DNA of 64,000 bases, from positions 148,800,568-148,864,567 of the forward strand of contig CM067359.1 in the NCBI GenBank assembly GCA_034401795.1. Direction: 5' to 3'. The stretch comes from Chaetoderma sp. LZ-2023a. Taxonomy: Eukaryota > Mollusca > Caudofoveata > Chaetodermatida > Chaetodermatidae. Below, one piece after another: positions 45,540 to 59,467 of the stretch. A program made the position numbers and the translations under genes. Positions within the stretch are counted from its first letter, which is position 1; each line of letters begins with the position of its first letter. Below the pieces are notes generated by a model, which searched no databases, was not told the DNA's origin, and saw nothing but the letters and a program-made list of their open reading frames with translations.

Positions 45540-47312
45540 GCAGAGCCGAAAGCATTCTGGCTGCGCATCTATCAAAGTGGCCAAAGTGAAGACCGCAGAA
45601 AACTACACCGGGAGCGCAATAACAATCTGCGCCATATTAGCGAATGCTTAAAAGATCTTGCTATTCAACAAGCAGACTCCCTAGCAGATGAGATCATTGC
45701 CACAGAATGTTTCGGGGAGCCCGAGTGCTGAAAGTTACTGACTGCACACCACCACTCACTGTACACAATTCTGAAGGACACTATCAGGATTGACCTGGGC
45801 AAAGGCGAGGCGATTCAAGAATGGTTCAAGAAACAGTTCACTGACCACGATGATGAGCCCTTTCAACCGTTCTAGGGAGAACTCAGGTCATTACTAACAC
45901 CAATTCAGACATCAGAAACTGAGAAGGCACTGAAAGCCCTAGAAAATGGGCGTGCATCTGTACCTGATGGCATGAGCGATGAAATATTCAAATATGCAAG
46001 TGGCATTATCTCAAAACCGATCCAGCACTTAATCAATTCAGTTTTTATTTGCTCCTCAACAACATACGGAAAATCCTATCCAATGTTACTCTATGCCGCA
46101 TCCGAGACAAGATCGATGAGATCACCGGATCATGTCAAAGTGGCTTCAAACTTGGACGCAGCTGCACAGACAGTGTATGGGCTCAATGTATGCTTGTGTC
46201 GGTAGTCATCTCAAAGCACTGGGATTTCCACAAAATAGGCATTTACATGGCACGTACCTCCGACACAATTAAACACTCAAAGATCCTAGATGTACTAGAG
46301 TTGCAAAGAAGATGAACTACGACTAGTGAGACTACTGCTTGCAAACACCAAGCTGAGAGTACGAGTCAAGTCAGTGAAGTCTGCAGAAATTGAGACAGCA
46401 ACCGGCTCCCCACAGGGAGATGGTTATCTCCTGTGCTTTTCACCTGTTACCTGGCTGCTGTATTGAAATCCGTGCGGGAAAGTTCCACAACACCAAACCC
46501 CGCAGTGTCAATATTGGGCATGCCGCTAGAGATGGAATATGCCCACGATGTGGACTTCATAGACGAGAGAAAGAAACCCTTTGATGAACGTCTCCCAACA
46601 GTTGCAGGCAAACTAAAAATTAATAACCTCGTTATAAATGCATCCAAAACAGAGTTTACCCACATATACCTATCCACAAAGCATGAAACTAAAGAAAACA
46701 ACGATCCACTTGGTGGCGGCGACCCACGGAGGAAAAGTAAAATTCGGGGCTCACTGCTTTGCAGTACTGCTGACATTGCTGCAAGCTGCGTCATGGGGAG
46801 TATAGCATTCCAGTCCTTCTGGAAACTCTGCGTATCCTTGATGATGTTAACTGTAACAGCTGAGCAGCTCCAAAGGCAGCTATAGACAAACTTGATGCCT
46901 GCCAGCGCAAAGACCTATGCGCCATCACTGGACACCGATGGCCATACAGCATAATTTCCAATGATGCACTCTACAAGATGCGTAATACGTCGCCGCTGTC
47001 TGTAAAAGTCGCCCAGCAAAGATGGTCCATGTTTGGACATGTGCTAAGGATGCCAGAAGAGACACCAGCACAGAGGGTCTTGGAATTCGTCCTACACGGA
47101 GCCAGCAAATACAAGGCCAGGAGAGGACGCCATTGCATAAATCTGCTAAGCGTGCTACGAGGTGACCTCAAGAAAGCAGGACTAGGTAAACTCAAACCAA
47201 GAATGGACCTGAGGAAGCTAAGGATTTCGGCTGAGGATAAGACACAGTGGGCAAAAGCGAAGAAGGACTGATTGCAGCTGTAAAATGTTTCTACTACTAC
47301 AGCCGCAGAATA
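45540..47312 (+). pseudogene. Non-LTR retrotransposon RT remnant (longest copy)
   Basis: Frames on the plus strand join into an RT-like protein. In order: a Lys/Arg-rich linker with stops (FGEPEC-stop near 45,730), LKALENGRASVPDGMSDEIF (Val where Gly is usual in SGPDG), QSGFKLGRSCTDSVWAQCML, TKLRVRVKSVKSAEIETATG, SPQGDG with a 1-base loss after it, EYAHDVDFIDE (His where the second catalytic residue of YADD would be Asp), NNLVINASKTEFTHIYLSTK, and a C-terminal part with SPLSVKVAQQRWSMFGHVLR, MPEETPAQRVLEF and AEDKTQWAKAKKD. The 3' end is TGTTTCTACTACTACAGCCG. Frameshifts and stops are numerous. No endonuclease domain was identified upstream; the clade is not assigned. Confidence 0.85.
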
Positions 47313-47420: not shown

Positions 47421-47426
47421 ACCACC
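47421..47426. repeat. 6-bp target-site duplication of the 11.2-kb element, left
   Basis: ACCACC directly precedes the left inverted-repeat terminus AGTAGTAA. The same ACCACC directly follows the right terminus at 58,624-58,629. Confidence 0.8.
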
Positions 47427-48495
47427 AGTAGTAAAGGGTGGGGCTGAGCGTTATTGTTCTTCCCAGCAGGGGGTCTTCGAGACCAATGGGTTTTTCACGA
47501 GAACAAAAGAAAAGCTTGCGGAATGGAATGTGGAGAACAATGGCGACTATAACGACACGCATTCTAGAGAACAATGACGACTATAACGCCACATTTTTCT
47601 CGATAACAATGACGCACAGCCGCACACGTTTTTTTGGATTTGCAACACTCTGGAATGTTATATTATTTTGAATTAGTTAACCCTTAAAAGTTTAAAAGTT
47701 GTGTATTTTATGTTTAAACGTAGTGGCGGCGCCCCCCCCCCCCTCCATGGTTATCTACCGTTGTAAAAATAATAAGAGAGTAATGTAAAAGAATAGAGTT
47801 TAAGAGGTGGTCTGATAATGGAGGTCGTATGAGGTTGAGCATGTATGAGGAATTATGGTATTAATGTTTGAAAATAATTTGACTGTTTCGTCGATAACGT
47901 TATTAGTAAACTGTAGAATATTTAGAGACTGCCTGTACGATGTTACTGTCTTAGCATCAGCTATCAGACAGATTAGTAACAAAATAGATTTTAAGAGGTG
48001 GTCAGATAGTAAACTGTAGAATATTTAGAGACTGCCTGTAAGCTGTTACTGTCATAGCAACAGCTACCAGATAGATTAGTAACAAAATAGATTTTAAGAG
48101 GTGGTCTGATAATGGAGGTCGTAGGAGGAGGAGGTTGAGGATGTATGAGGAATTACGGTATTGCTGTATATTTTGAAAATAATTTGACTGTTTCGTCGCT
48201 AACGTTATTAGTAAACTGTAGAATATTTAGAGACTGTCTGTAAGCTGTTACTGTCTTAGCAACAGCTACCAGACAGATTAGCAACAAAATATTTTTAAAA
48301 ATCTTGTATTAATGGTATGTTCGGTTGGAATGGTAACAAAGACTTGGTGGTGATGGATTGGATTGTATCATGGGTTAAAAAAGTTAACCCCTTCACCGAT
48401 GAATTCCCCATATCTCATTTTCATCGATACCATACAGGAAAACTGTTGAATATTTTGAAAATAATTTGACTGTTTCGTCGCTAACGTTATTAGTA
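47427..48495. repeat. Left terminal inverted repeat, internally expanded
   Basis: It pairs with 57,860-58,623. The outer ~560 bp (47,427-47,985) align almost base for base with the right end, including GTTTAAACGTAGTGGCGGCGC and a poly-C run. From about 47,990 to 48,285 there are extra copies of a module (TTTTAAGAGGTGGTC, GTAAACTGTAGAATATTTAG, AGCAACAGCTACCAGA) absent from the right end. The inner part TGTATTAATGGTATGTTCGG to TTTGACTGTTTCGTCGCTAA is shared again. Confidence 0.92.
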
Positions 48496-49030
48496 AACTG
48501 CAGAATATTTTGAGACTGCCTGTAACCTGTTACTATCTTAGCAACAGCTACCAGACAGATTAGCAACAAAATATTAAAAATAATCTTGTATTAATGGTAT
48601 GTTCGGTTGGAATGGTAACCAAGACTTGGTGGTGATGGATTGGATTCTATCATGGGTTAAAAAGAAGTTAACCCTTTCACCGATGAATTCTCCATATCTC
48701 ATTTTCATCGATACCATACAGGAAAACTGTTGAATATTTTGTAAATAATTTGACTGTCTGTGTCAGTTGAGGCAGAATGATATAGCATTCCTCCTCAGTT
48801 GATATTGCTGGGTGATTATGAGGGCGATGCTAGCGTACTTGTTTACAAGGTATGCACGATGTACGAATATTTTGATAATTTGTTGCTGAATATTTTGATA
48901 ATTTGAGTGGTAGCTGAATATTTTGATAATTGGTTGCTGAATATTATGATAATCAGTTGCTGAATATTTTGATTGGTTGCTGAATAAATTGATTGGTTGA
49001 TGAATATTTTGAAAACGATTTGACTGTGTA
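48496..49030. repeat. Subterminal repeats with reiterated GAATATTTTGA boxes
   Basis: A second copy of the ~240-bp inner terminal-repeat module (48,495-48,750) is followed by at least seven closely spaced TGAATATTTTGAT-like boxes between 48,860 and 49,015, separated by TTGGTTGC-type spacers. Confidence 0.85.
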
Positions 49031-50000
49031 AATTTTAATTTCTTATCAGACGATGTTAGGTAAGAGAGAGGTGGTCTGATAACGAAGGTCGAAGGAGGAG
49101 GAAGGAATGCTATCTCGGCCACCCTCTGCTCGGCATTGTTCTCCGCGCATGAGCGTGCCTTTATTCGGCTGGTGGTCCTTTAAGAAAATGCAGGTGGTCG
49201 CTCATAGAGGTGTCGCGAGGGATGAGGAGGATGGCTGATGTATATGCTAGCATATTCGCCATGGCAACGTCTTGCGCGATATCTCTGTACGAATATTTTG
49301 AAAATAATTTATTGTAAGCCGCTGGCGGTTTAGTCACCATTAACCCCCTCCTTGGTTTAAGTCATTTTAAAAAATGGCAGTCATTTAAGTATTAAATTTT
49401 CAAAATTGTTATGGAAATGGTCATCGTTGACGAGCGATGTTGTATAATATTATATAGATAGTTTTTTATCTACCATATTTATGTCTTTAAAGCGTCAATC
49501 ATTTAATTATTAAATTTTTTTTAAATATGAACAAACTCCCAGTCATTTAATTTTCCAAAATATCAGAGCATTGCGTTACACGGGTTATAGTGATCTACGT
49601 TGTATATATATATTTTTATCTTACGTATTTAAGGCGATTCTTTAAAGTGGAAGTCATTTAATTATTAAAATTTCAAAAATATGAGCAAAATGTGTTCCCC
49701 AGTCATTTAATTTTAAAAAATCAGACACATACACAGTAAGTTTTCCTATGCTATTATATAGATAGTGTTATCTATCGTATTTATGTCTTTAAAATGGCAG
49801 TCATTTAATTATAAATTTTTCAAAAATATGAACAAAATGCGTTCCTAGTCAATGGCAATGCATTAATCGTCCACGAACAATAGCGTACAGATGGCCATTT
49901 AGAACAGTAGCATCCATCGACCACTTTTGATGGATCAGAATGTGTGCTTGCGTATGCATGTGTGAAGTGGGTTGTTGTGTGTGAAAACTTTATTACATTA
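49031..50000. repeat. Left subterminal and ATTTAATTATTAAATTTT repeat block
   Basis: 49,060-49,310 (GGTGGTCTGATAACGAAGGTCG, GAGGAGGA, ATGCTAGCATA) is related to 55,240-55,400. 49,375-49,860 contains about five units of CAGTCATTTAATTATTAAAT with AAAAATATGAACAAAATGCG and TATTATATAGATAG, and similar units recur at 54,740-54,915. Minus-strand AATAAA signals for gene 1 lie at 49,989-49,994 and 50,002-50,007. Confidence 0.75.
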
Positions 50001-50079
50001 TTTTATTTTTTGAACAGATAAATAGTTCTCTTTCAAATGATTTGTGGGCCCTGAAAAGGGGCATGTTTTGAGATAGGTC

Positions 50080-50388
50080 TCAGTCTTCGCAGATCCGCAC
50101 AGGCGCGGTTGTCAGTTTGGTAACAAACTGTGTCATGTATGCTTTTTGTATATCAGTCGGAGTATCACCGATTACAGGACATCCATGCGGATAATGTTTG
50201 ATTGGTAATAGACAATAGCACTCCTTGCAGGTGTACACCATCTCTTTAGGTTCTGTTTTGTTGATCATATGCCTACAGACCCTCTCGTGTTTCGACCGTC
50301 GGCATATGGTGTTGCGGATGTCGATGGAACACCAACGACATCGCACATACCCAGTTTCTGATCCGTCAAAGTTTGTACTGCTGGCCAT
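50080..50388 (-). CDS. Gene 1: small zinc-binding-like protein, 102 aa
   Basis: 102 codons from ATG 50388. Residues 16-40 hold CRWC, then 13 residues to His and HERVCRH, giving CX2CX13HX3C with another His two residues on, close to a C2H2/C2HC finger. A second cluster, CKECYCLLPIKHYPHGC (about residues 54-70), may bind another zinc. The C-terminal 30 residues (TDIQKAYMTQFVTKL) look helical. It is basic overall, with no signal peptide or membrane segment; nucleic-acid binding is a guess from the Cys/His pattern. Two AATAAA signals lie 73-91 bp past the stop. Its upstream sequence is homologous to that of gene 2, which argues it is a real transcribed unit. A TATAAA at 50,416-50,421 is so close to the ATG that it would leave almost no leader. 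No family is recognised. Confidence 0.6.
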   Translation of the reverse strand: MASSTNFDGSETGYVRCRWCSIDIRNTICRRSKHERVCRHMINKTEPKEMVYTCKECYCLLPIKHYPHGCPVIGDTPTDIQKAYMTQFVTKLTTAPVRICED

Positions 50389-50473
50389 TTTAGCAAATGT
50401 ACATTAACATTTACATTTATACCACATCGCTCTACTACAAAAAAAATATATAAGGAATATCACGTGAGATGAA

Positions 50474-50585
50474 GTCTGACTGCCTAAGGCTACCTAACTA
50501 CTCTGCAGGTAGACATCCAACCACTTTGCTATGTTTAAACTGGAATGAGAAAATGGATTGAATTTGTACCGTTTATAGGAATATA
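50474..50585 (-). promoter_or_regulatory. Conserved upstream block of gene 1
   Basis: Aligns with 56,706-56,815 upstream of gene 2: ACTACTCTGCAG, CATCCAACCACTTTGCTATG, TTTAAACTGGAATGAGAAAA, TTGAATTTGTACC, TATATGTACTGCGGCCGC (plus-strand spellings). Read in the gene direction, TTTTCTCATTCCAG looks like a 3' splice site, so the block may be the end of a leader intron as well as or instead of a promoter. Confidence 0.65.
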
Positions 50586-50835
50586 TGTACTGCGGCCGCA
50601 AATCTGCAAATCCGCAACACGCGGCCCGCATGCGGCCGCACATGTATGCATGCATTTTGGCGTGTATGCATGTTCAGGCATGTGCATATACTTGTTGCCA
50701 TCCGCAACACGAGCCCGCAAATCCGCAACACGTGGCCCGCATGTGGCCGCACATGTACGCATGCATTTTGGCGTGTATGCATGTCAGGCATGTGCATATA
50801 CTTGTTGCCATCCGCAACACGCGCCCGCAAATTGT
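50575..50835. repeat. CpG-rich minisatellite upstream of gene 1
   Basis: Units of AAATCCGCAACACG(C/T)GGCCCGCA alternate with a ~75-bp segment (ACATGTATGCATGCATTTTGG, CGTGTATGCATGTCAGGCAT, TACTTGTTGCCATCCGCAAC) present twice here and once at 56,950-57,030. Contains GCGGCCGC. It is CpG-dense in AT-rich surroundings. Confidence 0.88.
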
Positions 50836-53800
50836 TAAGGTTTTCATGGGATATGCTCAGGTCAAAATCAGGGAATCGTATCAGATGTTAAGTTACACTT
50901 CTACCGGTATATGTCATATAGGTTACTTATATTATTTGCGTGAGAGATCTGGTGTTGTTATTGGGAACAGTAGTCTGCTCGGTTTACATTCCTAGCATAG
51001 TATTGTTGTTAAATATGACCCCATTTGCCCGTAATATTAAGTTATTGTAGAGTGTCTGCATATGCATAGTAAATGCATGTCAATGGATTGTGAATAGAGG
51101 TGTAAATCTGTGTTGGTTTTCAGGGCATTTGTTTGCTTGTATTATATATTCAGAACAGAATGTATATATCGTATCGCCTCTCAATTAGTAGTGGCTATAC
51201 ATTCTGCGACATGCATAGTTGTATCTGCTATGAAAGATTAGGACATGATTGGAATTTATCATTGATTTTCAAATTGCTATCATTAACCCTTTTAAGGCCA
51301 GATCACTGGAAATGTATATTCTTTACAATGTATGCAGTATTTTGTTGGGTAATTTGGGGTTAACATGACTGTAAATGACTTGCAGCCATGATAATTTCAA
51401 AATATTCAACAGCTCCTACTTGTTTGCACTGAAATGTATCGGCAAAAAACTTAGACATTCTTTTCTATTCGCCATACAAGTTATAGTTTGCATAGCAATG
51501 GATGCTATGCCAATATCAAATTCTAAATAGGTCCTGATGGTAACATGATTGAACATTTAAAGCTGAAAGGTCGTGTTAAATATTATATTCATTAGGGACG
51601 AAAATCCGTAAAGCAAACTATAAATAAATTGTGTAGCTATGTATGAGCAATTTATTTAAATTATGATAATTAAAGTTCTCATGTATTGATAAAAGGAAGT
51701 CCTGATTTTGACAATTAAAGTTCTCATGTATTGATAAGAGCAAGCCGTGATTTTGACAATTAAAGTTCTCATGTATTGATAAAAGGAAGTCCTGATTTTG
51801 ACAATTAACGTTCTCATGTATTGATAAGATCAAGCCGTGATTTTGACAATTAAAGTTCTCATGTATTGATAAAAGGAAGTCCTGATTTTGGAAACTCTGA
51901 ATAAGAAATGATGTTTACTTGATATGGAATACCGTGTCCAGATATCCAATATAAGTTTGGAAGAAAGTTTGAAATAAGCCTTAAATTATTGGTTGTTTTG
52001 TTAATCAAAGTCTTCAGAAGAGTTGCTGTTTTAGAATGGTAAACTCTTTTGATTTTATTGATTTAAAATACTCAATAATAAATTAGCTGTCCCCGATAGC
52101 CAGTAATATAGAATGAAGTCACAGTCAAAGATTAAATTGGTGAGAAGCATGTGGTCTTGAAGTAAATAGACTGTAGGATTGTACATTGTTCGTTTTGTTA
52201 TAGACAAAGATAATTTACTCTTGTTTCATTCTTTACAGGGTGAGGCGTATGTTGGTGCGTGATGGGTAATAAAATGCTGAAGCGGTGATGTGTCGGACCT
52301 GACATTCTTGTCCTGTATATTCCGGTAAGCGCTGTAGATTTTGGGAAATGACATGGGAAGTTTCTGTCCGGTAGGAAGTTTTGCTAAAATTTGCATTTGG
52401 ACGACAGTTTGACACGGTTTTCAATGTTCATCTTTGTTAAAAAGCTGTTTATTGACAACAATGTCAGAGTGACCTAGATATTAAAGGATTTTAACGTTTC
52501 TGCGGACAGAATTTCCATCTAGGAAGCTATTCATGGCTACAATTTGATTTTGGCTGGGATTTGATGTTTGATCATTTGAGCTTGATTGCAATCTTGGTTG
52601 ATGGTCAAATCCTTATCAGGATTAGATTGAGGTAACTTAGAGTGTTTGTGAATGACTTGGATTTGAATATACTTTGGACAGCTTGCCTGTTCAGTTCCAT
52701 TGACTATTGGGAAACGGAATGCACAGTCAAAGTGTTTTCAAAAGTATCATCAATGTTTATCTTGAACACAATTGGTTGAAGGCTTTCTATAGGTTTCCAA
52801 TTGCGCTGTTGTAAAATTGGAATTTTGCAGTACAATTTTACTTCAAAGTTGGGATCTCCCAATTTGCGGTTGAATTGTTTTCAGAATTTCATCTAATATT
52901 GTGATGACTCGAAATAGACCAGAGACACGAATGACAGGTACACTGGTTCGCGAATATCTCATTTAATTTGGGGATAAATGTGAAAATTGCATTTAGGAAA
53001 TATTTTAGATTGTTATCAAACTAGTTAATTTAAATTCGGCTTTAAACCCATGGCACAATGATGTCAATATTACGTTTTTATGTTGTCAAAGGCTAAGGAA
53101 CTTGTGTGCATTTTTCAATGTTTTTTTGGGGAATATGTTGCTGTATAGGACAGCATCACCTTCCACCAAATTGGTTGAACAATGAACACCAGTTCATACA
53201 TTAGTTTAAATAGAAGTTTAAGAATTTTGACATGAGATTTCAGATTTATATTTGTATTGATGTAATCTATTTTCAAACTTGTACTGACCTTGTTACTCTA
53301 AAGAGATTTGAATTGCTATATCGGTATCTATAAGCTGTTATCCCAGGTTTTCTATAGTCCAGCCCATATCCAAAAGAATATTCAGTTTAAAATGGATGGA
53401 TGTAATCTGTGACTCACTGTATCTTGAAACATTATTGATAAAAATTAATTATGTTCCGGGGTGACATTGCGTTTGGGATTGTATTTCTCTTTGAAATATT
53501 TGGCGATGAAATGTGACAGAGTAGAGAAGTATTTGGTGTATATTGAAACATCGTAATCATATGGAATCATGACTTTGCTCTTACTTGGTGTGATCTACAA
53601 TGTAATATCCAGTTCAGAAATATGTGGAAAGATATGAAAGTCTAATTAAGTTACTATCTTTGTTCTGAGGTGATTGAATATTCATTATTTTCAAAATCTT
53701 ACTAATTGAGAAGATAATGATGGTCAATGACTTCACATGGATTATTATATTTTGGAACCTCCATGGCAGGAAAATTGTGAAATTATTTGACATTGATTTG

Positions 53801-54430
53801 CCGCCCTCTAAGTCATTGATCTTTCAAGTTTACTATGGCTGCCGCCTTAATCTGAGAATTTATAATAATACAGTGATTTAACATAGTATAAGAACCTATT
53901 ATTTATAGTTGGTGTTTCCTTGAAATTGAAATTGACATGCTTGCCGCCATGTATGTGCATGTATAAAATGTTGACACATTATTGAATATACATTCGCAAA
54001 CATGGAAACGTATTTTTAAATGTTGATGATAACTGATCTAATAAATTCTTTGTTATATTTTTTTATGGTTGTTCAGGGGGTCAGTGAGGGGAGAAATTTT
54101 GCTCATGTAAATTCAATACTGTACCGGAGCAGAGATGGTGTCATTGATCAGTCAGTGAATCAATGCAATAAAATTTGGACACTGGAAGTTTGGATGTCAC
54201 GTTATCAATGAAAGGAATTTAAGTTAATGAAAAATTTAAGGTTTTGTCAACTTCTTCAAAATTTTGGACCATTACATATAGGATAATTTTAGGATTAGGT
54301 ATTATTTAGAATTATAAATATTGTACATTATAAAGAAAGAAAGTAAACATTTGATTTTGAATTTTATCACTCATTCGTTGCATATTTCTTCATTACTCTA
54401 CTAAAGGCTGATTGCAAATATTGAAAAATC
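50836..54430. other. Gene-free interior of the 11.2-kb element
   Basis: AT-rich with no frame over about 75 codons on either strand except within repeats. Scattered TTTGGAT/TTTGATTTT motifs give it a uniform texture, and part may be an intron, a noncoding transcript or a decayed gene region. Confidence 0.45.
51665..51889. repeat. 45-bp tandem array with alternating unit types
   Basis: Five units of GACAATTAAAGTTCTCATGT plus ATTGATAA, ending either in AAGGAAGTCCTGATTTT (type a) or in GAGCAAGCCGTGATTTT (type b), in the order a-b-a-b-a. The array therefore grew by 90-bp dimers. Confidence 0.93.
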
Positions 54431-54739
54431 CTATAATTACTAAAGCCCTGTAGATCAAATTTGACCCTTCGAACCATGTAAGTGGACTGAAACTTTTTAA
54501 GGAATATATTCCCCATAAATTCTTCTAGGAAATCGTTAAAAAATTAGGCTTTAGAACTCCCGTCAGAAAGTTGACAATTTACACTTTCGATCGCCACTAT
54601 CCAATCAACGTCCATAAAATTGTGACATATAATTCATACGATTAGCTCCCTTACATATGATTCGCTTTTAATCCTTCAATTTGTATGCAAACGCGTTAAC
54701 CTTCATCTAAAACACTCAAACATGAAACTAAGCGGCTTC

Positions 54740-55540
54740 CTACCAGTCATTTAATTTTTTTAAAAGCGAGCAAAGTACATCTCTATATGGGTAAAATATA
54801 GCTAAGCCAAGCGATGTTGTATGCATAATATTACATAGATAATAATCATGCATCTCGTATTTAAGGAGTGGTCTTTAAAGCGTCAGTCATTTAATTATTA
54901 AATTTTAAAAATTGTTATAAAAATGGTGGGAACAATGTCCACCATCGTCATCGTTGACGAAGAATGTCGAGCACCCTTGTATCATTTAACGTATTAGGTG
55001 GTCGATGCGGTCCCTCGTGGTTGTAGTAAAATAGTATTTTGAAACTAAGCGGAATTGTGGCTTTCTATGTCAAATTGTCGCATTGAACAGCACTTTTTTA
55101 AGAGTTTGTGCGCACGAAGGCGCTAGTGCGAATTGTAGCTTCCTATGTCAAATTAGTATCAAAACTATTCGCTTAAACTACCAATGCGCCATGATATAGG
55201 GTTGAAAAATCAGAAAATAACATCCCTGGAATGAGTGTAGGGGTGGTCGCATAACTGAGGTCGAACGAGTGAGGAGGAGGAGGGATGAGGTATGCTAGCA
55301 CGGTGCTGCCTGGCATGATGGGTGAGGTATACTAGCATACTTGTTTACAAGATCGGCAATGTGTGTTGTACGAATATTTTGAAAATAATTTAACTGCGGT
55401 GTAAGCAACAACTTTCTATCAAATCATTTCCATGATATTTAGTGGATATTTTGAAAATAATTTGACTGTCTGCATCAACTTTTGCTCAAATCGTTTCCAA
55501 AATATTTTGCTAGGAAGTAGATCCCTGGAATGTCTGAAAC
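54740..55540. repeat. Right AT-repeat and subterminal block of the 11.2-kb element
   Basis: CAGTCATTTAATTATTAAAT, GCGATGTTGTATGCATAATA, TACATAGATA and GTCATCGTTGACGAAGAATG match 49,375-49,465. 55,240-55,400 (GGTGGTCGCATAACTGAGGT, GAGGAGGAGGG, GCTAGCAC, GTTTACAAGAT) matches 48,820-48,860 and 49,060-49,280. 55,375-55,460 again carries GAATATTTTGAAAATAATTT. Confidence 0.75.
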
Positions 55541-55659
55541 ACCTCTCCAGTCAGCCATGTCCGGGTACACACAGTATGAATGCATTATGAGTACTTAGTC
55601 AATGAGACCCCGACAACAAAAATAATATAGTTGGCTAACCATTGTCTGGACACTGCGGC

Positions 55660-55860
55660 GGCAACCACCTACTACCAATACCGACCATCATCACCATCAC
55701 CACCACCATCACCATCACCATCCCTATATCACCACCAGCACCACCACCCACTAAGCACCAACACCCACCACCAAGCATTAACCCCACCCCATCATCCACC
55801 ACAACACCTATTTTCATCAACCGCCAACCCCACCGCCACCACCACTAAGTACAACAGCAC
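55660..55860. repeat. (CCA/CCAT)n low-complexity tract
   Basis: Pyrimidine-A rich CACCATCACC repeats containing GCATTAACCCCACC, which recurs inverted near 57,755-57,775 next to (GGT)n. Apparent Pro/His and Thr-rich frames are composition artefacts. Confidence 0.9.
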
Positions 55861-56035
55861 TCCGATTTGTATATTGAGGGATGTGGGGGGACCTGGCTGG
55901 GTAGTTACAATCATCAAATAAACACGCGCATAAAGAACCAATGTTTTATTTGTATCCATATTTTTACATTGAAGTAAATATTACATATGATAAAACGTAT
56001 AGTTCTGGAGATCCATTTTATCGATGACTGATTCC

Positions 56036-56650
56036 TTATGGATCAGATCCATCACCGTCAGAATCACCATCATTATCCTCAGCATCTAGATGGGTCCTTA
56101 TGTACTTCTTGATCAGAAACTCTATTTTTCGAAAAGCTGAGAAGACTGCTTCATCGTATGCGTACCCCTCGACGATAAAATCTTTAATTTCCTGACGAAT
56201 TATTTTAATGAGCGTAGAGTTCTGTAATCTTCTCGACTGGAGCATTATGTCCATGCACTTTGTAACTAAAGCATCAGCATATAAGAAAATAGGCACATTG
56301 CCTACACCATTTTGGTCTGTGTCCACGTCACCATCCTCATCTTCTAAACCTGATTGTTCAGCGTCTAAGACCTGCTTAATATTTTGGAATATGGTAAATA
56401 GTTCCTCATTGCCTATGGCATCTTTTTCATCTTCACCTTCATCTTCACTCTCAGTCTCCGCTGAGTCATTACCGGCTTCACTCTCTGACTCTGCTGGCTC
56501 ATCATTGTCACTATTCATCTCTGTCATTTCTTCATCTTCACTGTCTAGATTTTTGCTATCTTCATCGTTATGGAATCGGATCTTATGCCACTTCAGGTCA
56601 TTTGACCTATTAAAAGTTGAAGCACATGCAAAACATTTATGTCTCGGCAT
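56036..56650 (-). CDS. Gene 2: C2H2 zinc finger plus acidic and helical regions, 204 aa
   Basis: 204 codons from ATG 56650. Residues 6-27 form one canonical C2H2 finger (CX2CX12HX4H, with Phe and Leu at the usual core positions), starting MPRHKC. Residues 28-80 are a Glu/Asp/Ser-rich acidic stretch. Residues 83-100 (EELFTIFQNIKQVLDAEQ) look helical, then a second acidic linker, then a ~75-residue helical domain (IFLYADALVTKCMDIMLQSR, then LIKIIRQEIKDFIVEGYAYD and AVFSAFRKIEFLIKKYI). An acidic tail ends it. A DNA-binding protein is likely from the finger; the C-terminal domain is not recognised. The stop is followed 86-91 bp later by AATAAA (55,945-55,950). No stops or frameshifts. The upstream block is shared with gene 1. 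Confidence 0.7.
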   Translation of the reverse strand: MPRHKCFACASTFNRSNDLKWHKIRFHNDEDSKNLDSEDEEMTEMNSDNDEPAESESEAGNDSAETESEDEGEDEKDAIGNEELFTIFQNIKQVLDAEQSGLEDEDGDVDTDQNGVGNVPIFLYADALVTKCMDIMLQSRRLQNSTLIKIIRQEIKDFIVEGYAYDEAVFSAFRKIEFLIKKYIRTHLDAEDNDGDSDGDGSDP

Positions 56651-56705
56651 ATTGATTATAGGATAAATCTAGCAAGTATTCAAGTTACAAGGTTCTTCAA
56701 AGAAA

Positions 56706-56817
56706 TCTGACTGCCGAACTACTCTGCAGTTACACGTCCAACCACTTTGCGATGTTTAAACTGGAATGAGAAAAGGGATTGAATTTGTACCATTTATAGG
56801 ATTATATGTACTGCGGC
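56706..56817 (-). promoter_or_regulatory. Conserved upstream block of gene 2
   Basis: Homologous to 50,474-50,585 (CCAACCACTTTGCGATGTTT, AAACTGGAATGAGAAAAGGG, TTTGTACCATTTATAGGATT, TACTGCGGCCGC). It lies 56 bp before the ATG against about 86 bp for gene 1. It carries the same TTTTCTCATTCCAG when read on the minus strand. Confidence 0.65.
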
Positions 56818-57215
56818 CGCAAATCCGCAATATGCACCCGCAAATCCGCAACATGCGCCCACAATCCGCATCATGCACCCGCAATCCGCAACATGCACCC
56901 GCAATCCGCAACATACGCCCAAAAATCCGCAAATGCGACCCGCATGCGGCCACACATGTATGCATGCATTTTGGCGTGTATGCGTGTTCAGGCATGTACA
57001 TACACTTGGTGTCATCTGCAACATGCACCCACAAATCCGCATCATGCGCCCGCAAATCCGCAACATACGACCGCAAATCCGCATCATATGCCCACAATCC
57101 GCAACATAAGCCTGCAAATCCGCATCATGCGCCTGCAATCTGCAACATACGCCCGCAAATCCTCAACATGCAACCGCAATCCGCAATCCACAACGAGAGG
57201 TCGCAATCCACAACA
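56814..57215. repeat. CpG-rich minisatellite upstream of gene 2
   Basis: More than 15 units of CCGCAAATCCGCAACATGCG and shorter AATCCGCATCATGCACCCGC forms, with one copy of the TGCATGCATTTTGGCGTGTA segment at 56,958-57,000. Same origin as 50,575-50,835 but longer. Confidence 0.9.
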
Positions 57216-57859
57216 TGCGGTGGTGGTGCCTAGTGGTTGGTGGTGGATGTCGGTACTGTCATTGCTGGTGCTAGTGGCAGTGGTGTTGAAGGTGGTGGTG
57301 TTGATGCTCGTCGTGATGGTGATGATGATGGGGGTGGAGGATATAGGTGGGTGGTGGGTTGTGTTTGCTTTCGCAATGTCTAGACAAATGGATAGCCAGC
57401 AGAGGCAGTCATTCCGATGATAACTTTTCAAAAATAGTCTTCTGGCGCATGCATGTGCACAAGGGCGCACACTGGGGCATGCACGCACACACAAGGGTAC
57501 AATGTATAACTAGCAGTATCGCGTATTAGCACATGTGCATACGAGCGAGACCTTTATTAAATCCTCATTGACATATCCTCTCCAACCTATATGCCATTTT
57601 TTCAAACACAGAGCTCTCACACATTGCGACCACAATGTCTAGACAAATGGATAGCTGTCAGAGTCAGTCATTCCTGTGATAAATTTTCAAAAATAGCCTT
57701 CTCTAAAGATGCAAGTATGAATATGAAGAAATTTGCTATGGGTTGGCGGGTGCGTGGGTGGTGGGGTTAATGCATGGTGTAGGGTGTAGGTCGTAGTGGT
57801 GGAGGTGGTGGTGTTGTTGGTGGTGGGTGTTGGTGATGATGATGGTGGTTGGTGGGGGT
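57216..57859. repeat. GGT-rich tracts with two family C-like units
   Basis: (GGT)n-type tracts lie at 57,220-57,330 and 57,785-57,860. Direct repeats ATGTCTAGACAAATGGATAG, CAGTCATTCC, TTCAAAAATAG(T/C)CTTCT occur at 57,377-57,440 and 57,632-57,705. Confidence 0.8.
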
Positions 57860-58623
57860 GTTTACTAATAACGTTAGCGACGAAACAGTCAAATTATTTT
57901 CAAAATATTCAACAGTTTTCCTGTATGGTATCGATGAAAATGAGATATGGGGAATTCATCGGTGAAAGGGTTAACCTCTTTTTAACCCATGATACAATCC
58001 AATCCATCACCACCAAGTATTGGTTACCATTCCAACCGAACATACCATTAATACAAGATTATTTTTAATATTTTGTTGCTAATCTGTCTGGTAGCTGTTG
58101 CTAAGACAGTAACAGCTTACAGGCAGTCTCTAAATATTCTACAGTTTACTAATAACGTTGGCGACGAAACAGTCAAATTATTTTCAAACATCAATACCGT
58201 AATTCCTCATACATCCTCAACCTCATACGACCTCCATTATCAGACCACCTCTTAAACTCTATTCTTTTACATTACTCTCTTATTATTTTTACAACGGTAG
58301 ATAACCACGGAGGGGGGCGCGCCGCCACTACGTTTAAACGTAAAATACACAACTTTTAAACTTTTAAGGGTTAACTAATTCAAAATAATAGAACATTCCA
58401 GAGTGTTGCAAATCCAAAAAACGTGTGCGGCTGTGCGTCATTGTTATCGAGAAAAGCGTGGCGTTATAGTCGTCATTGTTCTCTAGAATGTGTGTCGTTA
58501 TAGTCGCCATTGTTCTCAACATTCCATTCCGCAATCTTTTCTTTTGTTCTCGTGAAAAACCCATTGTTCTCGAAGACCCCCTGCTGGGAAGAACAATAAC
58601 GCTCAGCCCCACTCATTACTACT
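57860..58623. repeat. Right terminal inverted repeat
   Basis: Reverse complement of the left repeat, 764 bp, ending TTACTACT at 58,623. It contains a single copy of each module and is therefore the likely unexpanded form. Confidence 0.92.
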
Positions 58624-58629
58624 ACCACC
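58624..58629. repeat. 6-bp target-site duplication of the 11.2-kb element, right
   Basis: ACCACC, identical to 47,421-47,426. Confidence 0.8.
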
Positions 58630-58633
58630 GACA

Positions 58634-58972
58634 ATGGACCTTTCCCTTTTTTGCCATGCCCCGCCCATCTCTAGCTAAGCTCCACCCACACCTCGATCGT
58701 GTTGGGATCGATCTCTGAACTCCCTGACCATCAATTTCCAGAAAACTATACAGGTAAGCTGTTGAATATTTTGAAAGTAATTTGACTGGGTGCTGTTGCT
58801 GCCAAAATATTCAACAGCATGTTTATTAAGTAGTAGAGACATACAATTTGCACAACATGTCGGACTATTAAGCGTTAAAGACGTATAGAATCATTATGAC
58901 GTAATAATTATAACGTCATCCTACACGTCGCTTAGCTGATTATTACGTCATATGACTCTGGAAAGGCCCATT
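58634..58972 (+). mobile_element. Family A element, full length
   Basis: Ends ATGGACCTTTCCC and GGAAAGGCCCAT; the palindrome is shortened at its right arm. It begins 4 bp after the duplication of the 11.2-kb element. No exact TGACGTCA remains (TGACGTAA, TTACGTCA). Confidence 0.88.
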
Positions 58973-59355
58973 AAATTAATCCAATTCGTCACTCAAGTAT
59001 ATGGCGTCATAATAAATTACGTCACATGTAGGCTGACGTCACACTCAAAATGCATAATGATGAGGTAGTCTGTTATGAACTATGAATAGTCCATTAGTTG
59101 TGCAAATGGTATGTCTTTACTATTTAATAAACAGTTTGCTGAATATTTTGAAACTAATCTGACTGGGCGTTGTTGCTGCCATAGACAGCAGGCCACCCAT
59201 TCATGTTAGTGTCAAAATATTCAACTGCTCAACTGTATAGTTACCTTGAAAAAGAGATTCTGGAAAGTCAGGGTTCAAAGTATATAAATCGATCTCAACA
59301 CGGGCAAAGCAGGGGGAGCTTAGCTAGAGATTAGCGCGGCATAGCTAAAAGTGGA
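58973..59355 (-). mobile_element. Family A-related element, reverse
   Basis: CGTCACTCAAGTATATGGCG, CTGACGTCACACTCAAAATG, GTATGTCTTTACTATTTAAT, a palindrome with GTTGTTGCTGCCATAGACAG, then GGAGCTTAGCTAGAGATTAG and CGGCATAGCTAAAAGTGG. It follows the previous element tail to tail. Confidence 0.8.
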
Positions 59356-59467
59356 TTCATCAATTTGCTATCTGGAAATAATGACATTGACAACAGATGC
59401 GTCTCACAGAGACAAATGACACCGTATCTTAAACTGTCCTAGAATATCAATATCAGTGATGATGGTA

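What the first reader, a model, noticed from the sequence alone, without database searches (positions are those of the whole stretch)
47421..58629. 11.2-kb element with Polinton-type ends but none of the Polinton genes
Seen: inverted terminal repeats of at least 764 bp beginning AGTAGTAA, bounded on both sides by ACCACC. Known: Polinton/Maverick elements have long inverted repeats starting 5'-AG and make 6-bp duplications; the short AGT AGT repetition at the tip would suit protein-primed replication with slide-back. Inferred: this is a non-autonomous or cargo-bearing derivative. Polymerase B, integrase, protease, ATPase and capsid frames are absent, and two small zinc-finger-like genes occupy the interior. 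I know of no described family with this content.
Basis: partly seen in the sequence, partly recalled or inferred. Interest (0 to 1): 0.88.

Follow-up and report, generated by a model that had tools for sequence, protein, structure and literature searches.

The report
Gene-bearing Polinton hitchhiker in a mollusc
This 11-kb stretch is a mobile DNA element that keeps the ends of a virus-like Polinton but not its working replication or capsid genes, probably copied by fuller Polintons in the same (probably mollusc) genome, while carrying two small genes of its own whose role is unknown.

Summary
The element is real at 47427-58623: AGTAGT...ACTACT ends, inverted repeats of at least 764 bp, a perfect ACCACC duplication, and a paralogous empty site about 120 kb away with one ACCACC. 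Twelve other copies were examined in the same genome (2.4 Gb, probably a mollusc). In 10 of 11 copies with both edges visible the 6-bp duplications match exactly. Two longer copies with these ends (17.7 and 12.5 kb) carry polB, protease and capsid-like genes, and one of them integrase and ATPase too. All 11 short copies examined instead carry the same two small genes, a related upstream module before each, and the same decayed polB scrap. So one non-autonomous founder amplified. Four mapped loci join short-type and long-type DNA, so the two recombine. Selection on the two genes is not established, and mobilisation by helper Polintons is inferred, not shown. New variant of a known kind.

The parts
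47421..47426 (.). left copy of the 6-bp target duplication ACCACC
   Evidence: single copy at the paralogous empty site
47427..48757 (+). left inverted terminal repeat (764 bp equivalent plus extra internal repeat copies); tip AGTAGTAA
50080..50388 (-). small gene A: 102-aa Cys/His-rich protein; no homologue found outside this genome in the searches made
   Evidence: polyA-like signal 75 nt past the stop
50490..50807 (-). upstream module of gene A, related to the one before gene B
   Evidence: (family D9)
50835..54656 (+). nested, 5'-truncated copy of an unrelated high-copy repeat; found in none of the 12 other copies
54644..54736 (+). decayed polB remnant (part of a scrap found in all 11 short copies)
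56036..56650 (-). small gene B: 204-aa protein, N-terminal C2H2 finger, acidic middle, four helices predicted at low confidence
56711..57011 (-). upstream module of gene B, related to that of gene A
   Evidence: (D9)
56812..57199 (.). 20-21-bp GC-rich repeats overlapping the gene B module
   Evidence: D1
57860..58623 (-). right inverted terminal repeat; tip TTACTACT
58624..58629 (.). right copy of the 6-bp target duplication ACCACC

Best explanation
A non-autonomous Polinton. Its ends match those of gene-bearing Polintons in the same genome. It was most likely copied by such Polintons' protein-primed polymerase (jump-back on AGT AGT) and inserted by their integrase with a 6-bp duplication, in trans. 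It descends from one founder that had lost nearly all Polinton genes, kept a scrap of polB and carried two small genes, each behind a related upstream module. Shown: shared ends, duplications, empty site, common layout of the 11 short copies, 150 scored places for each gene, loci joining short-type and long-type DNA. Inferred: mobilisation in trans, and that the two proteins serve the element.
For: Ends: tips of 12 other copies are 83-96% identical to W's left 300 bp, among them two long copies with polB, protease and capsid-like genes, one also with integrase, chromodomain and ATPase. Duplications: 10 of 11 identical. Empty site with one ACCACC. Founder: both small genes and the polB scrap in 11 of 11 short copies, the genes in 0 of 2 long copies. 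The scrap is 69-72% identical to the C7 copy's polB (4 short copies tested) but 91-98% identical among 6 short copies, so it had decayed before amplification. Abundance: 150 of 150 scored candidates match, for each gene (capped lists). Possible helpers: 147 polB matches from 75 scored candidates; 8 of 10 fetched polB loci are of the C7 copy's family. Junctions of short- and long-type DNA at four mapped loci.
Against: No replication intermediate, transcript or polymorphic insertion was looked at or seen. Both long copies read here have broken genes. Short copies (8.9-11.2 kb) lie well under the ~17 kb mean size called constrained for vertebrate Mavericks (PMC8097293, passages), so packaging by a helper is doubtful. 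Of the four junction loci, two showed no W-type end in the stretches fetched, one only a weak inner piece, and the C5 one matches W's end only from base 179 inward. Singleton changes in the two genes show no constraint.
Confidence: 0.82

Rival explanations
1. A degraded Polinton: W is simply an ordinary Polinton that lost its genes by local deletion and decay after insertion.
For: A polB scrap survives. One short copy keeps a protease piece (C2a). Copies decay without constraint after insertion.
Against: 11 of 11 short copies share the two genes and the scrap, and the copies with both edges in view lie at sites with different duplications, so the gene loss preceded insertion.
Confidence: 0.05
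2. A true satellite parasite: the two proteins are kept by selection because they help the short element exploit the Polinton machinery or the host, for example as DNA-binding regulators.
For: Both genes have a related upstream module and a polyA-like signal in 11 of 11 short copies. ITR-chosen copies show relatively fewer amino-acid changes among shared than among singleton variants (13N/10S against 99N/18S, p=0.004). The polB scrap beside them decayed while the genes stayed open.
Against: Shared variants alone do not differ from the neutral expectation (p=0.10), singletons carry more amino-acid changes than that expectation (p=0.003), and a 46-copy set shows no contrast (43N/18S against 126N/41S, p=0.50). 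The star-like tree leaves little internal branch length. The age of the genes relative to the scrap is unknown.
Confidence: 0.3
3. The two genes belong to an autonomous Polinton lineage not yet found here, and the short copies are its plain deletion derivatives.
For: Four mapped loci carry small-gene DNA near polB, and a few more pairs lie within about 16 kb in the hit lists (read by eye, not mapped). Only two long copies and four junction loci were read, of many polB loci.
Against: All four mapped loci contain the scrap in addition to polB, which points to recombination between short and long elements rather than to a parent. In the two that share one junction the 204-aa gene is cut.
Confidence: 0.25
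4. Host cargo or a different transposon: captured cellular genes, or a DDE element that merely resembles Polintons.
For: No homologue of either whole protein was found that would show its origin; the only match is a generic C2H2 finger.
Against: Ends, duplication length and gene-bearing relatives are Polinton-type. The 150 listed places of each gene are 86% or more identical to the window copy, like a repeat family; a more distant host gene would not appear in these capped lists, so an old capture is not excluded.
Confidence: 0.07

Closest known systems
Polinton/Maverick elements (vertebrate set of PMC8097293, passages seen)
   Same: (AGT)2//(ACT)2 ends, inverted repeats within the reported 46-1,447 bp, 6-bp duplications; longer copies in this genome carry Polinton genes
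   Different: W lacks working polB, integrase, ATPase, protease and capsid genes, is 11.2 kb (about 7.4 kb without the nested repeat), and carries two unrelated small genes
Non-autonomous DNA transposon families such as MITEs and internally deleted elements (general knowledge)
   Same: share ends with a gene-bearing family and presumably move in trans
   Different: large, with two open reading frames, gene-like signals and related upstream modules; the ends are those of a self-synthesising element
Virophages and satellite viruses (general knowledge)
   Same: dependence on a larger relative's machinery would be analogous
   Different: no capsid gene found in W and no evidence of particles

Membership tests
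Polinton/Maverick (autonomous) | ends start AGT AGT with long inverted repeats | tested here: met
Polinton/Maverick (autonomous) | 6-bp target duplication | tested here: met
   10 of 11 copies identical, 1 with one mismatch; empty site
Polinton/Maverick (autonomous) | protein-primed polB | tested here: not met
   only a decayed scrap in W
Polinton/Maverick (autonomous) | rve integrase, ATPase, protease, capsid proteins | tested here: not met
   no tblastn match in W at E<=1e-4 to pieces of these genes from the C7 copy
Non-autonomous Polinton derivative | same ends as gene-bearing copies in the same genome | tested here: met
Non-autonomous Polinton derivative | internal sequence traceable to the parent | tested here: met
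   polB scrap in 11 of 11 short copies; otherwise W's interior shares only pieces of 27-36 nt with the two long copies
Non-autonomous Polinton derivative | moved by the parent's enzymes | not testable with these tools
   inferred from shared ends and duplication length
Satellite virus / virophage | packaged and transmitted with a helper | not testable with these tools
   no capsid match in W

The most novel reading that the evidence does not exclude
A gene-bearing satellite lineage that lives off Polintons inside an animal genome. It has its own pair of zinc-finger-type regulators under twin control modules, has replicated long enough for its polB scrap to rot while the two genes stayed open, and exchanges segments with its helpers by recombination.
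Probability: 0.3. Interest if true: 0.75.

Novelty: new variant of a known kind. Interest (0 to 1): 0.52.

Why it matters
[quoted passage not shown] A short, gene-bearing derivative sharing ends with resident Polintons offers a concrete route to high copy number: derivatives moved in trans. If the two genes are selected, it would be a satellite parasite of a self-synthesising transposon. Short copies, long copies and loci joining the two lie in one genome, which makes this testable by comparison.

Tried and rejected
Homologues of the two proteins: none in the 5.8-billion-protein set (172 candidates, none at E<=0.01; no candidate), none confirmed in IMG/VR contigs. No Pfam family for the 102-aa window copy at E<=1 and no PDB match. 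The 204-aa protein gives only a C2H2 finger: PDB profile match E=3e-5 and Pfam zf-C2H2 in 20 of 30 copies at E<=0.1, the window copy not among them. AlphaFold models were poor (mean pLDDT 48 and 47), so no fold search was run. A polB piece of the C15 long copy found two distant proteins at 28-30% identity.

Selection test: pairwise dN/dS 0.75 for both genes in ITR-chosen copies (10 copies of the 102-aa gene; 6 of the 204-aa gene, one with a stop) and 0.39-0.53 by divergence bin in 46 copies of the 204-aa gene. The 46 are those 6 plus 40 taken from the protein-score list, which biases toward conserved protein, and include two from the C5 and C14 junction loci. In one search, 10 of the 11 short copies were used for each gene (C15a left out for the 102-aa gene, the partly read C1 copy for the 204-aa gene) and 191 of 204 codons of the latter, gapped codons dropped. 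The shared/singleton contrast is significant only in the ITR-chosen set. I do not claim selection.

Exact census of ends: the pattern search did not complete. First-look candidate numbers (2183 for the end, 3509 and 983 for the genes) are unscored and are not copy counts.

Literature: in the rows listed (15 of 45; 3 of 3; 15 of 57; 15 of 175; 7 of 8; 3 of 3; 10 of 32, none of these holding the word Polinton) I saw no title or abstract start about a gene-bearing non-autonomous Polinton; the exact phrases non-autonomous/nonautonomous Polinton or Maverick had no paper. Beyond listings I saw passages only, of PMC4028283, PMC8097293, PMC5753468 and PMC10294476. The 2006 Polinton paper is not held. 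Repbase was not searchable, so entries there cannot be excluded.
Full report
What was checked. The window lies in contig C1 of a 2.44-Gb genome. The genome has 44 matches to the haemocyanin beta-sandwich family PF14830, which rang in 0 of 14 control genomes. I recall this domain as that of mollusc haemocyanin, so the host is probably a mollusc; the species is unknown. Element W runs from 47427 to 58623 (11,197 bp), begins AGTAGTAA, ends TTACTACT, and is flanked on both sides by ACCACC. Its inverted arms align at 95% (first 555-560 bp) and 93% (to 764 on the right, 1072 on the left). The left arm is longer because it holds extra ~280-305-bp internal repeats.

Other copies. A 301-bp query with the left end (tip plus duplication) gave 40 matches from 40 scored of 2183 first-look candidates. 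I fetched 12 other copies, chosen by their ends. Of 11 copies with both edges in view, W included, ten have identical 6-bp duplications and one (C10) differs at one base. One of the ten lies in a GTG repeat and says little. Two copies had one edge outside the fetched stretch. Joining W's flanks and searching the genome found a continuous 97% match over 274 bases, 120 kb upstream on the same contig, with a single ACCACC. Over 200 bases on each side the left flank is 98% and the right 90% alike. That is a paralogous empty site, so most simply W inserted after that duplication. Different flanks and duplications show that the copies arose by insertion, not only by duplication.

Long and short copies. 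Two copies are long. The one on C7 (17.7 kb, duplication TATGCC) has polB pieces, an rve integrase, a chromodomain and an adenovirus-type protease (the last three over their Pfam cut-offs), and an ATPase whose best match, Pox_A32, lies just under its cut-off. The DNA_pol_B_2 match comes from the C15 copy; the one C7 polB piece given to Pfam matched nothing, but the C7 pieces are about 85-91% identical to the C15 ones. ORFs that I read as capsid proteins rest on position and likeness (recalled; the pieces tried scored nothing in Pfam). The copy on C15 (12.5 kb, duplication GAGCCT) has polB, protease and major-capsid-like pieces, its matches to the C7 pieces being 75-94% identical, and a weak (35%) minor-capsid-like match, but none to the integrase or ATPase pieces. 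Both copies' genes are broken up over several frames. The other 11 copies, W included, are short (8.9-11.2 kb; the one at C1:120.8 Mb was read only in part). All 11 carry the 102-aa and the 204-aa gene, and neither long copy does. The 102-aa frame is open in 10 of 11 and the 204-aa frame in 5 of 11.

One founder. In all 11 short copies a scrap matching part of residues 310-410 of the first C7 polB piece lies between the two genes, on the other strand; in W only residues 360-390 remain. A wider low-identity alignment of one copy reached residue 240. Its DNA is 69-72% identical to the C7 polB (four copies tested) but 91-98% identical among six short copies. It was therefore already decayed when the copies spread, or came from a more distant polB. 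Otherwise W's interior shares only pieces of 27-36 nt with the long copies. The simplest history is one gene-poor founder with the two genes, then amplification. A tree of 46 copies of the 204-aa gene is star-like, with mostly longer tips than internal branches.

Gene-like features. Each gene is preceded by a related module: in W 87% identical over 134 nt, 76% over 327 nt, and 92% over 120 nt in family D9. Such a match is found before both genes in 11 of 11 short copies, and the W modules find no match in the two long copies. A polyA-like signal lies 75-76 nt (102-aa gene) and 88-117 nt (204-aa gene) past the stop in all 11. The 204-aa protein has an N-terminal C2H2 finger, weakly supported (E=3e-5, 20 of 30 copies at E<=0.1, best 0.0024, the window copy not among them). 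The 102-aa protein has no match beyond chance.

Abundance. For each gene 150 of 150 scored candidates matched; the lists are capped. By my count 119 of 150 (204 aa) and 142 of 150 (102 aa) show no internal stop. These lists are ranked by protein score, so they over-represent good copies, and some pairs of small contigs look like duplicate haplotypes. PolB: 147 matches from 75 scored of 2661 first-look candidates. Of 10 polB loci fetched, 8 belong to the C7 copy's family (most pieces 82-94% identical, a few lower) and 2 to another family (27-42%). Some polB frames show no stop, others do.

Loci joining both types. At C5:65.5 Mb a copy switches sharply from short-type DNA (93% to a short copy) to long-type DNA (93% to the C7 copy). 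Its ends match W's only from base 179 inward. At C14:13.24 Mb the scrap adjoins an ATPase and polB region, and the 102-aa gene is missing from the stretch fetched. C12:164.3 Mb and C15:24.3 Mb share one junction, the long-type basic protein (residue 119) against the 204-aa gene (residue 116), followed by scrap and 102-aa gene. W-type ends were not in view at C14 and C15 and only weakly at C12. A few further small-gene/polB pairs lie close in the hit lists but were not mapped. Short and long elements therefore recombine, but whether these joined forms moved as units is open.

Selection. In ITR-chosen copies, singleton changes show no constraint: 102-aa gene 32N/8S against 31.6/13.1 (and 2.6 stops) expected from the noncoding spectrum, 204-aa gene 67N/10S and 3 stops against 56.2/20.4/4.6; together they carry more amino-acid changes than that expectation (99 of 117, p=0.003). 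Shared changes are 13N/10S against 99N/18S singletons (p=0.004), but against the neutral expectation p=0.10, and the 46-copy set shows nothing (p=0.50). Inserted copies decay; constraint in the replicating lineage is possible but unproven.

The nested repeat. W's 50835-54656 gives no match in any of the 20 stretches fetched from the 12 other copies. It occurs elsewhere at 95-96% as full-length matches at 28 of the 40 scored places, W's own not counted among the 28 (my count). In five of these the 3' end is constant with different DNA beyond it, and the 5' side extends further than in W. It is a 5'-truncated repeat that landed in W; without it W would be about 7.4 kb.

Mechanism. Shown: common ends, common duplication length, co-residence and recombination of short and long elements. 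From PMC8097293 (passages): the end repetition is expected to allow jumping-back in protein-primed replication, and 6-bp duplications are reported for intact elements; that the integrase makes them is general knowledge. Inferred: helper Polintons replicate and insert the short element in trans. Whether particles are involved is open, since short copies are far below the ~17-kb size given there. The likely role of the two proteins, DNA binding and regulation, is a guess from the C2H2 finger and acidic region.

Comparison and novelty. W is not an autonomous Polinton, since polB, integrase, ATPase, protease and capsid genes were tested and not met. It fits a non-autonomous derivative, a known kind among transposons in general. 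What is unusual is the two-gene cargo with twin upstream modules, kept in all 11 short copies examined. My searches of open-access papers showed no such description, but Repbase and subscription papers were out of reach.

Noticed in passing
window 50835-54656; G000 C3:44085569, 44098574, 44111579: High-copy ~3.74-kb repeat with constant 3' end and variable 5' extent; one search lists no ORF of 80 aa or more within 50996-54656. On C3 it recurs at a 13.0-kb spacing, suggesting it is part of a longer tandem unit.
   Followed up: partly
window 58630-59400: The right flank is itself a dispersed repeat (38 of the 41 matches are other places matching about its first 120 bases at 89-94%) and holds sequence resembling the internal repeats of the element's ends.
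   Followed up: no
window 46433-47271: ORF remnants in the left flank that look like part of a reverse transcriptase gene by eye; Pfam gave no match.
   Followed up: partly
L014 (C1:170.45 Mb) and L011 (C11:20.69 Mb): A Tc1/mariner-like transposase frame nested in two short copies (343 aa stop to stop in the C1 copy), identified by eye.
   Followed up: no
L033, L034: A second Polinton polB family, only 27-42% identical to the one studied.
   Followed up: no
G000 C8, C17 and C1610 haemocyanin matches: Several closely similar haemocyanin domain clusters on C8, one on C17 and one on a small contig, possibly recent duplication or assembly haplotypes.
   Followed up: no
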